A stretch of 64,000 nucleotides of DNA from Phytopythium helicoides (Eukaryota; Oomycota; Peronosporomycetes; Pythiales; Pythiaceae). Shown piece by piece: positions 15,600-21,121 of the stretch (positions are counted from its first letter, which is position 1; each line of letters opens with the position of its first letter). Made by a program: the position numbers and the translations under genes. Under the pieces are notes generated by a model. The model ran no database searches. It was not told where the DNA came from and was given only the letters and a program-made list of their open reading frames with translations. The DNA is taken from the NCBI GenBank assembly GCA_024867545.1, contig JANFNE010000001.1, positions 434,001 through 498,000 of the forward strand, read 5' to 3'.

Positions 15600-16582
15600 C
15601 TAGGCAAAGATGAGCTCGCCACCGTCGACAAGCGATACCTTGTGCGAAAGTGGGATGCCATCACGCGCAACGCCTGCGGCCTCCATGCGGTCGACAACGT
15701 CGAAGCCGTCCACGACATGGCCAAATACGACGTGCTTGCCGTTCAGGTGTGGCGCAGCGCCGAGCATAAAGCAGAACTGGCTGCCATTCGTGTTGGGACC
15801 CGAGTTGGCCATCTGCAGGATGTAGCGCCCCGAGTGCGTCAGACGCAGGCCATTTGGCTCATCGTCTGGTGGAAACGAAGGGCGATCAGCTTCTTGCAAG
15901 ATGACTCAACTGGGAGCTAACCCGTCACGCACCGAACTTGGCGCCGTAGATGCTGCGGCCGCCATACCCCTTTCCGGTGGTGAAGTCGCCACACTGGACG
16001 ATGAATCCCGTGAGGATGCGGTGGCACACGCTGTTGTGGAAGGAGAAGTCGGGGCCTTTTTCGCCCGTCGTGAGCGCGCGGAAGTTCTCGGCCGTCTTGG
16101 GCACCAGGTCGGCGTACAGCTGCGGCATCGCAGTCCCGCTTAGCTCTGTCTCCCCACCCAACTGCTACCTGGCACGCTCGGGAACGCACCTCGATGGTGA
16201 CGCGGCCCACGGGCTCGTCATCGATGGCCACGTCGAGCCACACGTACTTTCGCTCTGGGTTGATGGCCCAGGACGAGTTGGTGACCTGCGCGGGCGGCAG
16301 CGGCTCCTCCTCCTGCGGCTCCTCTGGCTGCGTCTTGGCGTCCTGCTGCGCGCGCTTGATCGCGTCCTGCGCGTCTCGGCGCTGCGCGTAGGCGCGAGCG
16401 CGGTCGCTCAGCGCTCCGCCGTCTCTCGCGGGCGCCGCGGCGTCGAAGCTGAAGAAGACGTTGACCACCGCGAAGTACGAGACGAAGAGCAGCCCCATGG
16501 CCAGCAGGATGAGCTTGCGCGCGTCGCGGCCCTGGCGTGGGGGCGCCAGCCGCGCCGGCGCGCCGCTCGACCGCGGCAGCAT
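15600..16582 (-). CDS. Membrane-anchored cyclophilin (peptidyl-prolyl isomerase)
   Basis: Three exons, 16190-16582, 15933-16119 and 15600-15892, give 290 aa. The introns are 70 nt and an unusually short 40 nt. ATG 16582 is the first ATG in frame. A signal-anchor follows at residues ~23-45 ([20 protein letters not shown]), then an acidic/Gln-rich stem. The cyclophilin domain starts at about residue 115. Family motifs are recognisable: [64 protein letters not shown]. The catalytic Arg is kept, but the usual FHR reads CHR and QGGDF reads QCGDF. The likely topology is type II, with the domain in the secretory lumen, acting on proline bonds of folding proteins. Confidence 0.85.
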
Positions 16583-16854
16583 CTCTCTCTCTCTTTCCAC
16601 GCGGCGGCCGCTTCGCCTTGCCGCTTCGCCTGGAAATTACAGGATTGGGCGCGTGTTCTCCGCGATATTCGCGCGCGGCTGGCGTCTGATAACCAAGTGG
16701 CGCCGACGGTAAAGGGCGCCGACAAGGAAGGAGGCTGGGCGGGTCGTCGCTGCTCCGCGGCCGCCGACAGGCCTCGCCCACTGCCCGATCGCCTCGGTCG
16801 AGAGCAGCGCGCCCACCGCCTCGCGTCGGTACCTCCCGCCTCGCCCTCGCAGCC

Positions 16855-17261
16855 ATGGGCTTCCACATCCCGGACTCGCCGCGCTCGGCTCCGTCGACGG
16901 CTTCTGCAGCGCCGAGCGCGTCGCAGCTGCCCATGCGCGCGCGCAGACGCAACGCGATCGTCGCCGCGCTGTTCGTGGACCCAATGGGCTCGCCGCGCTC
17001 GCCTGCTGTGTGTCTGACGCTTGGCCGCCGCGCCGAGCTGGCGCAGCAGCGCGAGCAGCAGCACGCGCGGGAGCTGGCGGCCGAAGACCCGCTGCTAGCC
17101 GCGCGCAAGCCCTCACAAGGTGAGTCCTCCTCCAAGGCCTTCCTCTATGGCCTTGCTCCAAGGCAGGATGGAGCTGTGGCCGTTGGTTGGTGGTGACGAG
17201 GCGGTGGTTCACGACTAGTGCATTGACAGATGCGAGCGGATTGGCCTCGGATGCTCCGTGA
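16855..17261 (+). CDS. Small conserved-looking hypothetical protein
   Basis: Exons 16855-17119 and 17230-17261 with a 110-nt intron (GTGAGT donor, TTGACAG acceptor) give 98 aa. The N-terminus is Ser/Pro/Ala-rich, then a basic RARRRNA patch, the segment GSPRSPAVCLTLGRRAEL, and a Gln/Glu/Ala helix ending AAEDPLLAARKPS. I recognise no domain. Support rests on a clean donor, in-frame joining and a stop soon after the splice. The GC-rich context means a chance ORF is possible. It is divergent from the cyclophilin gene (272 bp). Bases 17262-17530 hold nothing I can call. Confidence 0.45.
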
Positions 17262-17835: not shown

Positions 17836-20341
17836 ATGGCGAGCGCGGCCGCCGCCGCCGCGTCCAGCGCCGACTGGCTGTCGACCGCGGACCGCCTCGC
17901 GCTGCTCATCCAGCGCTACGGACTCGCGGAGGACAAGGTGGCGCAGCAGCTCGGCTGGCCGCTGGAGCAGCTGCGCGCCTACCTGGCGCCCGACACTCGC
18001 GTGCAAGGCCACCTCCGACGTGCGTGGGCAGACGAGTCGCGATGGCTTGGGGCGCTTGCATTGACGAAATGGCGGATGCGCGGTGCACAGGTCGTGGACA
18101 ACGCGGCTGACAAGCTGCTCATGCGCTACCGAGTTGCCATGGCGCGCCAGACGCTCGCAGGAGCGGCCTCGGGGCCGCTCGCACCCGTAGAAGCCAGTGC
18201 GCGTCGATCGGTGCTGCCCGCAGCGGTGGGGATATGACGAACTTGACTGCGACCGGTGCGAACAGCGAGCTGATGAGTTGTGTGCGTGGTGGACAGTTTT
18301 CCCGCGCCGTCATCGACCGGCGCAGCGTCATTCACGCGCAACCCACGCCGGCGCAGCAGGTGCAGGTGCATAACTATGTCGCGTGATGCTTCCTCACTGA
18401 CGTGACTGTGGCTGACGTTTGTAGCGGGCATCAACTGAGCGACAGGCTGCTGCAGCGACGGCAGCGGTCACTGGCGGAATTGCCAGCCGGCGGAAACGAA
18501 AGCGCAAGGTACTGGCACAGGACCTGTCAGTCGCCGACGGGCCAACCCCGGCTTCGTCCTCATCGACCGCTGAGCCGCGGAAATTACGAATCCGACCCGG
18601 GGCTGTCGATTTGGTATGTCCAATCCGCCTCGATGTCGATGTCGATGGAGTGCGATATCAAGACACCTTTCTCCTCGATGCGTACGTGCATAAGCTTTTG
18701 TGAGAGGAAAACGCCAACAGCGGACCCATACTGGACATTGTGATCTGCAGATCCAGTGCTAGCTGCACTCCCGAACGAATGGCTTCGCAAATTGCAATCG
18801 ACGAAAAACTTCCAGATAGTGTGCAGGTACCGTTCGTCAGAATGTCGTTGGGTGTCCTGCGGAACTGACATCTTTTGTGTGCACAGAATGCCTTAGCTGA
18901 ATCCATCCGACGACAGCTCATGACATTTTGTACCAGTGCGGCCTCCAGTTTTGATGTCATGCCGGACCGCCTTTACCCCATCTACTTGGATATCATCATC
19001 GGGGGATCTCGGTATGAAAGAGTCAACATGCTAATTGTGCGTTTGCATGCAGTTCAATCCAAAACTGACGACGTTGTGAATGTGCTGCATAAAAGCTCCG
19101 AGACCAAATCGAGTGGGACATCACCAACGACTTTCCATCCGCTCAATCTTTCGCAAGTACTGTAAGTCTTTGCGAATTGTAGGCTTTAGTGTCTGAACTG
19201 GTGAAGCTCACGAGTGTCTGTGCCGCAGCTATGTGCCGACCTAAATCTGTCGCCAGCTTTTGAAAGTGCGACTACATTCTCAATATGGGAGCAGGTGGTG
19301 GCATACCGCACAGCACTCGGCTTTCGTAAATGGATCGGTGTTGAACCATCCAGCAACGCACAGCCAAAAGTAAACTCCGATACCACGACGGTGGGGGCAG
19401 GTTTCATCGACTGTTTGCCTCCGCTCGAAGCCAATACCCCCGAGGAGCTAGATGTGATTCGGCATTCCCCTGATACTGGTCAGTCGAAATAGTCTGTGAA
19501 GGGTGGTCCCGTATTGATTTTCTGACGTGTCTGTTGGCACGGAGTAGCTCTATGGCAGCCAATCGTGAGCGAGCTTTCCAGAGAGGAGCGCACATATCTA
19601 GCCGCCAAGCTGGGAGCTACTCATGCGTAGGTTTTTTCTTGATGCCCCTGAACGAGATTAATTCTAATGCTATTTGGTCCATTCTGCAGGCCAACATCGA
19701 GGAAAAACATCGCTTCCCACGATGCAACAGGCAATCATGCCCCGAAGCGCCACCCACAACATCGCGCAGCACCCAAAGATCACAAGCTTCCTCGACCGAT
19801 CAATCCTTTCATCATGTATTGCCAGGTCCAGAAGGACATTTTTGCCAAATCCAAGAGTAGAAAATCGGCTTCCGAGACTCGGAAAATCTTCGGCGACATG
19901 TGGCGCAAATGCACTGACGAGGTTCGTGGGTCTGGAAGTGTGGAGCTGGTGGTGCTGCTCTAATATCTGGGTGTGCTTTGCATCGGCATTTCAGGAGAAA
20001 GAGTACTATGCTCAGCTGACCGAGGCTGAGAACGAGAAGCGGCGGCGCGAGTACATACTTGACCAGCGAGATCGCGCAATTGCTGAGTGGGAAGAGGACG
20101 AAGCTCGACGGAAAGGCCTTTTGTCATCCGCACTGTTGGATGCAACGCCTGAGTATTTGCGCGGACTATTACTCGAGGTACGGCTTGGAACGTATGAGCT
20201 TCATTTACATGCACTGTCCAAAGCTCTAACGAGTCCAACGCATTATGATGCCAGGACTACGTGAACGAACGACACGAAGTGGATGTGAATCGAGCGCACG
20301 CCTCTGTAGATGAGGATGAGGACGTCGACAATGACGAATAG
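17836..20341 (+). CDS. SMARCB1: SNF5/SMARCB1-type chromatin remodelling subunit fused to an HMG box
   Basis: Exons as read: 17836-18377, 18425-18681, 18751-18836, 18887-19036, 19096-19161, 19229-19478, 19548-19626, 19690-19921, 19995-20177, 20255-20341. All joins after the first exon keep frame. SNF5 repeat 1 is CPIRLDVDVDGVRYQDTFLL through ALAESIRRQL. Repeat 2 is YPIYLDIIIGG, LRDQIEWDITNDFPSAQSFA, LCADLNLSPAFESA and FSIWEQVVAYR. A basic linker leads to an HMG box (LPRPINPFIMYCQVQKDIF, ETRKIFGDMWRKCTDEEKEY) and an acidic tail (DEDEDVDNDE). SNF5 is a core subunit of SWI/SNF remodellers; in animals the HMG box belongs to a separate subunit. Exon 1 needs one extra G in the GGGG at 18227-18230 to stay in frame. 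Confidence 0.82.
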
Positions 20342-20467: not shown

Positions 20468-21121
20468 TTAGTCATAGATCTCGATGCCGGTCGTCTCGGC
20501 AATCTCCTGGCGCAGAAGCTGGACGAGTTCCGTGCCGTCGCGCGTGTTGAGCCATTCGCCGCGCGCGGCGTCAAACTCGTACCGACGAGGGCCGCTGGTA
20601 TGGATAGATCCGCGGGTCAGATGGCGCGTCCGCGACAGCCGCGCGAATCTGACGTGAGTGGTGCTCACCTGATGGGGGACGACCACCAGATTTGGCGGTT
20701 CGGGATCTGGCGGTTGATGACCCATGTGCCGTCGTCGCCCAGGTCGATCTTGAGCACGCCTTGCTGCAAGCGTCGAGCCGACCATCGCCATGAGTCCAAA
20801 GCAAGACCTTTGTAAAGCATCCTCAAGCGCAAACCCACCGCGAGCGAGATGTCCGACTCCTCCAGCATCTCATCGATGCCGTCGAGCCACTCGAGGATGT
20901 CGTGCAGCGTGCCGTCCTGCCAGCTCCATGAAGCGGTTCTCGTCCACGGCGCCGCCGTCGCTCGCGTCCGTCGACAGCGCGCGCGTCACCGCCCAGCGCG
21001 TCGCCTGCAGCGGCGCCACGGGGCGAAGACGCGCCGCCGTCACGCAAGCAGCGGGTCGCAGCACGCGCGCAGGCAGCGCTCGGCGCGCCTTGGTCGCCGT
21101 GGCCAGCGCCTTGCGCAGCAT
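20468..21121 (-). CDS. FXN: Frataxin, mitochondrial iron-sulfur assembly protein
   Basis: Exons 20839-21121, 20669-20763 and 20468-20594 (introns 75 and 74 nt). The basic N-terminus (MLRKALATATKARRALPARV) is a likely mitochondrial presequence ending near TRALSTDA. The frataxin core follows: DILEWLDGIDEMLEESDI (acidic helix 1), GVLKIDLGDDGTWVINRQIP, NRQIWWSSPI, SGPRRYEF and a C-terminal helix VQLLRQEIAETTG. Frataxin helps iron or sulfur delivery to the ISCU scaffold. Near 20917 one surplus base separates the presequence frame (ENRFMELA) from the core frame (DGTLHDIL). Since both sides align to the family, I treat it as a probable sequence error. Divergent from the next gene with 147 bp between. 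Confidence 0.88.

What the first reader, a model, noticed from the sequence alone, without database searches (positions are those of the whole stretch)
17836..20341. SNF5 (SMARCB1) fused in frame to an HMG box
Exons encoding two SNF5 repeats run without a stop into exons encoding a complete HMG box (LPRPINPFIMYCQVQKDIF ... GDMWRKCTDEEKEYYAQL). Every intron from 18378 on has a canonical donor and acceptor, and phases match at each join. In animals the SWI/SNF HMG box sits on a separate subunit (BAF57/SMARCE1). A single polypeptide joining the nucleosome-contacting SNF5 core to an HMG DNA-bending module would be an unusual remodeller architecture. I do not know of a description of it.
Basis: partly seen in the sequence, partly recalled or inferred. 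Interest (0 to 1): 0.75.

Follow-up and report, generated by a model that had tools for sequence, protein, structure and literature searches.

The report
Oomycete SNF5 with built-in HMG box

Summary
Exons 18425-20341 give one 454-residue open frame with SNF5 (5.9e-24) and HMG box (7.9e-11) domains, GT-AG at all eight introns and matching phases. Of 45 homologues, 31 carry both domains, in Phytophthora, Peronospora, Bremia, Pythium and Lagenidium among others. One (P0027) is a 555-residue fused frame on a contig of 1,773 bases, too short for the introns seen here, so it does not rest on splice prediction. The genome has a second SNF5 gene (C57, near-copy on C90), also ending in an HMG box; its relatives include Saprolegnia, Achlya, Aphanomyces and Albugo. 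The two SNF5 types group together against fungi and animals (99/99), and their HMG boxes group together (92/84), which fits one old fusion followed by duplication. I read it as a SNF5-type SWI/SNF subunit that carries its own HMG box, usually 56-59 residues after the SNF5 end (24 of 39 models). Complex membership and DNA bending are inferred. The rows seen from ten answered paper searches describe no such fusion, though databases already hold many fused predictions. New variant of a known kind.

The parts
17836..18000 (+). Exon 1: start ATG and N-terminal helix-turn-helix-like region (DRLALLIQRYGLAEDKVAQQLGW...)
18091..18225 (+). Exon 2: conserved helix (ADKLLMRYRVAMARQTL)
   Evidence: splice sites chosen by similarity to relatives
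18297..18377 (+). Exon 3 (3' end tentative): DRRSVIHA motif
   Evidence: similarity to relatives; donor could be 18360, 18366 or 18378
18425..18681 (+). Exon 4: KRKRK basic stretch and start of SNF5 repeat 1
18751..18826 (+). Exon 5: SNF5 repeat 1, continued
18887..19021 (+). Exon 6: end of repeat 1, start of repeat 2 (3' end has a weak donor)
19096..19161 (+). Exon 7: SNF5 repeat 2 (LRDQIEWDI...)
19229..19478 (+). Exon 8: rest of repeat 2 and linker
19548..19626 (+). Exon 9: SNF5 C-terminal element (LWQPIVSELSREERTYLAAKLGATHA), probable counterpart of the finger-helix region
19627..19689 (+). 63-nt phase-2 intron, the only sequence between SNF5 and HMG exons; unspliced, a TAG follows at 19628
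19690..19921 (+). Exon 10: linker and first part of the HMG box
19995..20177 (+). Exon 11: end of HMG box, long charged helix, start of the tail shared by this SNF5 type
20255..20341 (+). Exon 12: end of conserved tail, acidic C-terminus, TAG stop

Best explanation
The gene encodes one of two SNF5-type proteins of an oomycete. It has an N-terminal region that may be a POU/lambda-repressor-like fold, two SNF5 repeats, the SNF5 C-terminal element, a linker, an HMG box and a type-specific tail. Most likely it is a core subunit of an oomycete SWI/SNF complex. The SNF5 repeats would dock on the SWI3-type subunit and hold the nucleosome face, as SMARCB1 does. The attached HMG box would insert into the minor groove of nearby nucleosomal or linker DNA, steadying the nucleosome or easing DNA off it during remodelling. 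In animals the HMG box sits on the separate subunit BAF57/SMARCE1. Shown: the fused frame, its conservation, the domains, the second fused paralogue, the common grouping of both. Inferred: complex membership, DNA bending, effect on remodelling.
For: Single frame with both domains. 31 of 45 relatives carry both domains; for the second SNF5 type 39 of 71, the rest being 31 with SNF5 only (7 oomycete models, 24 from other or unnamed sources) and 1 with HMG only. P0027: 555-aa fused frame on a contig of 1,773 bases. Foldseek and VIA-align put the SNF5 part on human and yeast SNF5 subunits and the other region on HMG boxes. The own genome encodes other SWI/SNF-type domains: SWIRM, 2 matches; SnAC, 1; ARID, 3; SWIB, 6 at 5 places, not all need be SWI/SNF. 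The distance from the SNF5 W-x-P motif to the HMG box is 56-59 residues in 24 of 39 P1-type models and 59 in the window. SMARCB1 contacts the H2A-H2B acidic patch through its finger helix, and SMARCE1 carries the HMG domain in human complexes (PMC9839376, passages).
Against: No interaction, binding or expression data for this organism. The SNF5 part of this type is more variable than that of the second type (longer end branches). Its finger-helix counterpart lacks the invariant EREDFKRMR motif of the second oomycete SNF5. Only one SnAC match was found, so two SNF5 proteins need not mean two complexes. Two relatives' models (P0014, P0020) have only 31 residues between the SNF5 motif and the HMG box. 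Both AlphaFold models have low mean confidence (56.5 and 54.5).
Confidence: 0.62

Rival explanations
1. The gene is a former SWI/SNF subunit turned stand-alone DNA-binding regulator: HTH-like region and HMG box bind DNA, SNF5 repeats serve other contacts.
For: Longer end branches and weaker SNF5 match than the second type; a second, better conserved SNF5 exists that could fill the complex; one SnAC match found; type-specific tail.
Against: SNF5 repeats and the W-x-P C-terminal element are kept in nearly all of the 19 relatives aligned (P0031 lacks part of repeat 2). Yeasts also keep two SNF5-type subunits in two complexes (established knowledge; solved structures).
Confidence: 0.2
2. The HMG box no longer acts on DNA and serves as a protein-contact module inside the complex.
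For: HMG boxes can bind proteins (recalled); P1 boxes score lower than P2 boxes against Pfam (29.8-42.7 bits in four P1 proteins, 50.6-54.7 in four P2 proteins; the cut-short P0122 at 32.9 left out).
Against: The N-x-F-[IL] motif that in SRY and LEF1 carries the minor-groove wedge (recalled) and the core W are kept in both types.
Confidence: 0.15
3. Two neighbouring genes: a SNF5 gene that stops inside the intron at 19628 and an HMG gene that starts at an ATG in the intron (19667).
For: An unspliced intron gives a stop where SNF5 proteins may end, and an open frame with an ATG runs from 19667 into the HMG exon.
Against: Only 63 nt lie between; the intron has good GTAGGT and CTGCAG ends; relatives align through the joint; P0027 is fused on a contig too short for the introns seen here; the second paralogue is fused too.
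Confidence: 0.02

Closest known systems
Human SMARCB1/BAF47 and yeast Snf5/Sfh1
   Same: Two SNF5 repeats and a C-terminal element after them
   Different: No HMG box in those proteins and, in SMARCB1, a different N-terminal winged helix (both recalled); here an HMG box and tail follow
Human SMARCE1/BAF57
   Same: HMG box in a SWI/SNF setting; it is the best single-domain PDB match of the window's HMG box (27.4 bits)
   Different: Separate polypeptide in animals; it lacks the Asn that the SNF5 fusions have before the wedge residue (alignment); the second oomycete SNF5 HMG box is nearer the HMGB1 B box
Fungal SNF5/Sfh1 proteins with a GATA zinc finger (for example AoSnf5)
   Same: SNF5 domain joined to a DNA-binding module in one protein (PMC8055810, passages; PF00320 in P0109, P0110, P0114)
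   Different: Zinc finger, not an HMG box; separate lineage
Yeast Nhp6 or animal HMGB acting beside remodellers
   Same: HMG protein that loosens nucleosomal DNA (recalled)
   Different: Free protein, not a covalent part of the remodeller

Membership tests
SNF5/SMARCB1 family | SNF5 domain (two repeats) over the curated cut-off | tested here: met
   PF04855 85.5 bits, cut-off 21.8; Foldseek top matches of relative P0001 are SMARCB1, Snf5 and Sfh1 chains
SNF5/SMARCB1 family | Arginine-rich finger helix after repeat 2 | tested here: inconclusive
   W-x-P and basic residues are kept, but no invariant arginine motif in this type; the second oomycete SNF5 has invariant EREDFKRMR in 19 of 19 aligned
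SNF5/SMARCB1 family | Physical subunit of a SWI/SNF complex | not testable with these tools
   No proteomics; SWIRM, SnAC, ARID and SWIB domains are encoded
HMG-box proteins | HMG_box domain over the curated cut-off | tested here: met
SMARCE1/BAF57 family | HMG box grouping with SMARCE1 apart from other HMG boxes | tested here: inconclusive
   Best single-domain PDB match is SMARCE1, but in the HMG tree SMARCE1 is a long branch outside the SNF5-HMG group
SMARCE1/BAF57 family | Separate HMG subunit without SNF5 domain | tested here: not met
   The HMG box is in the SNF5 frame
Oomycete SNF5-HMG fusion | SNF5 and HMG in one frame, SNF5 part grouping with other oomycete fusions | tested here: met

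The most novel reading that the evidence does not exclude
Oomycetes have moved HMG boxes into their remodellers: both SNF5 proteins (and, in this genome, an ISWI-type ATPase) carry their own. In the window's SNF5 type the usual 56-59-residue spacing acts as a ruler that puts the DNA-bending box at a set place relative to the nucleosome face. Together with the HTH-like N-terminal region, SNF5 becomes a three-module nucleosome and DNA clamp, and a separate BAF57-like subunit is not needed. (Probability lowered from 0.30 after one search showed two models with a 31-residue spacing.)
Probability: 0.27. Interest if true: 0.68.

Novelty: new variant of a known kind. Interest (0 to 1): 0.52.

Why it matters
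SWI/SNF is among the best studied families of nucleosome remodellers, yet what its HMG subunit does is hard to isolate because it is a separate protein. A lineage in which the HMG box is fixed to the subunit that touches the nucleosome is a natural experiment: box, linker length and finger element can be changed within one polypeptide. It also bears on how SWI/SNF parts were divided among proteins in different eukaryotic lineages, in a group with many plant and animal pathogens; my paper searches found little on its remodellers.

Tried and rejected
Separate HMG gene: rejected (63-nt spacing, conserved joint, P0027, fused paralogue). Gene-model artefact: rejected for the same reasons. BAF57 origin of the HMG box: not settled; the SNF5-HMG group joins no single outside box with support. 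In that HMG tree the P1 boxes are not one clade: P0038 falls outside the rest, and of 12 non-SNF5 HMG matches in the genome only 8 boxes were included (both C16 boxes, one C13 box and the C78 box left out). Homology of the N-terminal regions of the two SNF5 types: profile comparison gave no support (probability 0.4 percent, E 0.15). The POU-specific resemblance was listed for the P0001 model and was not among the 50 rows listed for the P0046 model, where that region has pLDDT about 50. Fixed spacing: first counted on a chosen set (20 of 20 at 56-59); recounted on all 39 P1-type hits: 24 at 56-59 (one of these, P0039, from a scrambled model), P0008 at 53, P0021 at 62, P0014 and P0020 at 31, three with unusable distances, eight without one of the motifs. 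SNF5-HMG outside oomycetes: the third protein search, with a mixed alignment, returned no named non-oomycete (53 hits), but the search works by shared words, so this is no evidence of absence. Pfam scan of the P1-specific tail and of the upstream MGFHIPDSPR exon: no family. One own-genome search was wasted on an out-of-frame 18-residue peptide. Papers: ten searches were answered. SNF5 + HMG box + oomycete gave 0 papers; among the rows listed (capped lists) none looked like a description of the fusion. Listings only were seen, plus passages of PMC2628886, PMC4222949, PMC6562869, PMC9839376 and PMC8055810.

Full report
What is there. The plus strand from 17836 to 20341 holds a gene of about twelve exons. 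From exon 4 on (18425) the model is firm: nine exons joined by eight GT-AG introns of 60-77 nt with consistent phases give 454 residues and a TAG stop. Pfam scores SNF5 at 5.9e-24 and HMG_box at 7.9e-11 in that one frame. Searching the relative P0001 against the assembly in six frames gives eight matches, seven of them in this gene and in order; exons 5-7 were not recovered that way. The first three exons follow relatives; the donor of exon 3 is uncertain. The join 19021/19096 is the weakest: donor GTCAAC, acceptor AAAAG, and three residues not seen in relatives. A DNA search found no second copy of the gene in the genome. It lies between a minus-strand cyclophilin exon upstream and a convergent frataxin gene downstream.

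Is the fusion real. The SNF5 and HMG exons are separated by a single 63-nt intron with GTAGGT and CTGCAG ends. Unspliced, a TAG follows at 19628, about where a SNF5 protein could end, so the two-gene reading deserved a test. Three results speak against it. Relatives align through the joint (window THA|PTSRK, P0001 TRAPTSWK). P0027, a relative with both domains, is 555 residues (1,668 nt with stop) while its contig is 1,773 nt, which leaves about 105 nt and no room for the introns seen here; that it is a transcript contig is my inference. And 31 of 45 proteins found with the 454-residue query carry both Pfam domains; 12 have SNF5 only (6 oomycete models, 6 others), 1 HMG only, 1 neither. At least two of the SNF5-only oomycete models (P0021, P0026) still show HMG residues in their sequence, so they look like damaged predictions.

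A second fused SNF5. A search of the whole assembly for SNF5 found C57 and C90, not the window (whose exons are short), and an HMG search hit just downstream of both. Joining the exons gives a protein with a helix-turn-helix region, SNF5 domain (1.5e-42) and HMG box (2.7e-13); the join of its second and third exons, and so the attachment of its N-terminal region, rests on relatives such as P0046. C57 and C90 are 92-93 percent identical in two long blocks of the fetched 3.6 kb. Searching with it gave 71 proteins, 39 with both domains, including Saprolegnia diclina, Achlya hypogyna, four Aphanomyces species and Albugo as well as Peronosporales. I call the window type P1 and this type P2. No named Saprolegniales or Albugo protein appeared among the P1 hits. 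P0038, without a name, falls with P1 in the SNF5 tree (93/86, long branch) and shares part of the P1-specific tail.

History. In a tree of 28 SNF5 domains, P1 (7 rows) and P2 (10 rows) are each well supported and, with P0038, together form a 99/99 group against ten rows that include animals and fungi, four of those ten unnamed. In a tree of 33 HMG boxes the 18 boxes from SNF5 proteins lie on one side of a branch (92/84, not strong) against 8 other boxes of this genome (of 12 matches) and 7 from solved structures; within the 18, P0038 does not join the other P1 boxes. The simple reading is one fusion before the P1/P2 duplication, at least as old as the split of Saprolegniales, Albugo and Peronosporales. 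Plants and other stramenopiles were not sampled, so the fusion may be older.

The complex. Domain searches of the genome gave SWIRM at two places (94 percent identical to each other), SnAC at one, ARID at three, and six SWIB matches at five places. So a SWI/SNF complex is likely; whether P1 and P2 serve one complex or two is open. Among the other HMG matches (five loci besides the three SNF5 ones) those that I read, in partly cut output, looked like multi-box HMGB-type proteins, an ISWI-type ATPase, or a single box near a histone fold; none was an evident BAF57. Boxes split by introns can be missed.

Novelty. Databases label many of these proteins HMG box domain-containing or SNF5 subunit, so the predictions exist. 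Among the rows that my ten answered paper searches listed, none described the fusion (open-licence library, capped lists). A SNF5 protein with another DNA-binding module is known in fungi, with a GATA finger (PMC8055810, passages). I rate this a new variant of a known kind: a solid, conserved and testable change of architecture in a well-known machine, not a new kind of machine.

Noticed in passing
L042 (G000:C33:166000-171500, minus strand): ISWI-type ATPase (SNF2 2.2e-98, SLIDE 9e-34) with a C-terminal HMG box (9.3e-12) in the same uninterrupted 1,286-residue frame; a further HMG box (HMG_box_2 2.3e-9) lies in the open frame just upstream, so it may have one at each end.
   Followed up: partly
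window 16854-17119 (+): Exon reading MGFHIPDSPR...RRRNAIV...GSPRSP with a good donor at 17120; 3 of 45 relatives' gene models (P0029, P0032, P0039) put a similar stretch in front of SNF5-HMG. Either a separate small gene or an alternative 5' exon; no Pfam family.
   Followed up: partly
G000: C57/C90, C5/C79, C72/C11, C1/C1/C4: Near-identical gene pairs (about 92-95 percent; one pair on C1 99 percent) for SNF5 P2, SWIRM, ARID and SWIB loci, while no twin of the window gene was found. Unmerged haplotypes, hybrid origin or recent duplication are possible.
   Followed up: partly
window 20000-20341; relatives: P1-type proteins share a tail after the HMG box (WEEDEARRKGLL...RGLLL..YMSERHEVD) not seen in the P2 proteins read and in no Pfam family; the unnamed P0038 has part of it.
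   Followed up: partly
P0014 and P0020 (relatives), linker before the HMG box: Two gene models lack about 25 linker residues present in most relatives (31 instead of 56 from W-x-P to the box): alternative splicing or misprediction.
   Followed up: no
P2 proteins, N-terminus (alignment A5): 28 residues (LRQVDVSKECGVNASMLSQWMLGRYKGN) are invariant in 19 of 19 P2 proteins aligned, from Phytophthora to Saprolegnia; HTH match below Pfam cut-off.
   Followed up: no
L043 (G000:C78:65500-68500): HMG-box exons followed downstream by an open frame that looks like a CHRAC/DPB4-type histone fold (recalled resemblance); possibly one gene.
   Followed up: no
window 15925-16164 (-) and 20468-20985 (-): Neighbours: a cyclophilin-type isomerase and frataxin, both on the minus strand.
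   Followed up: yes
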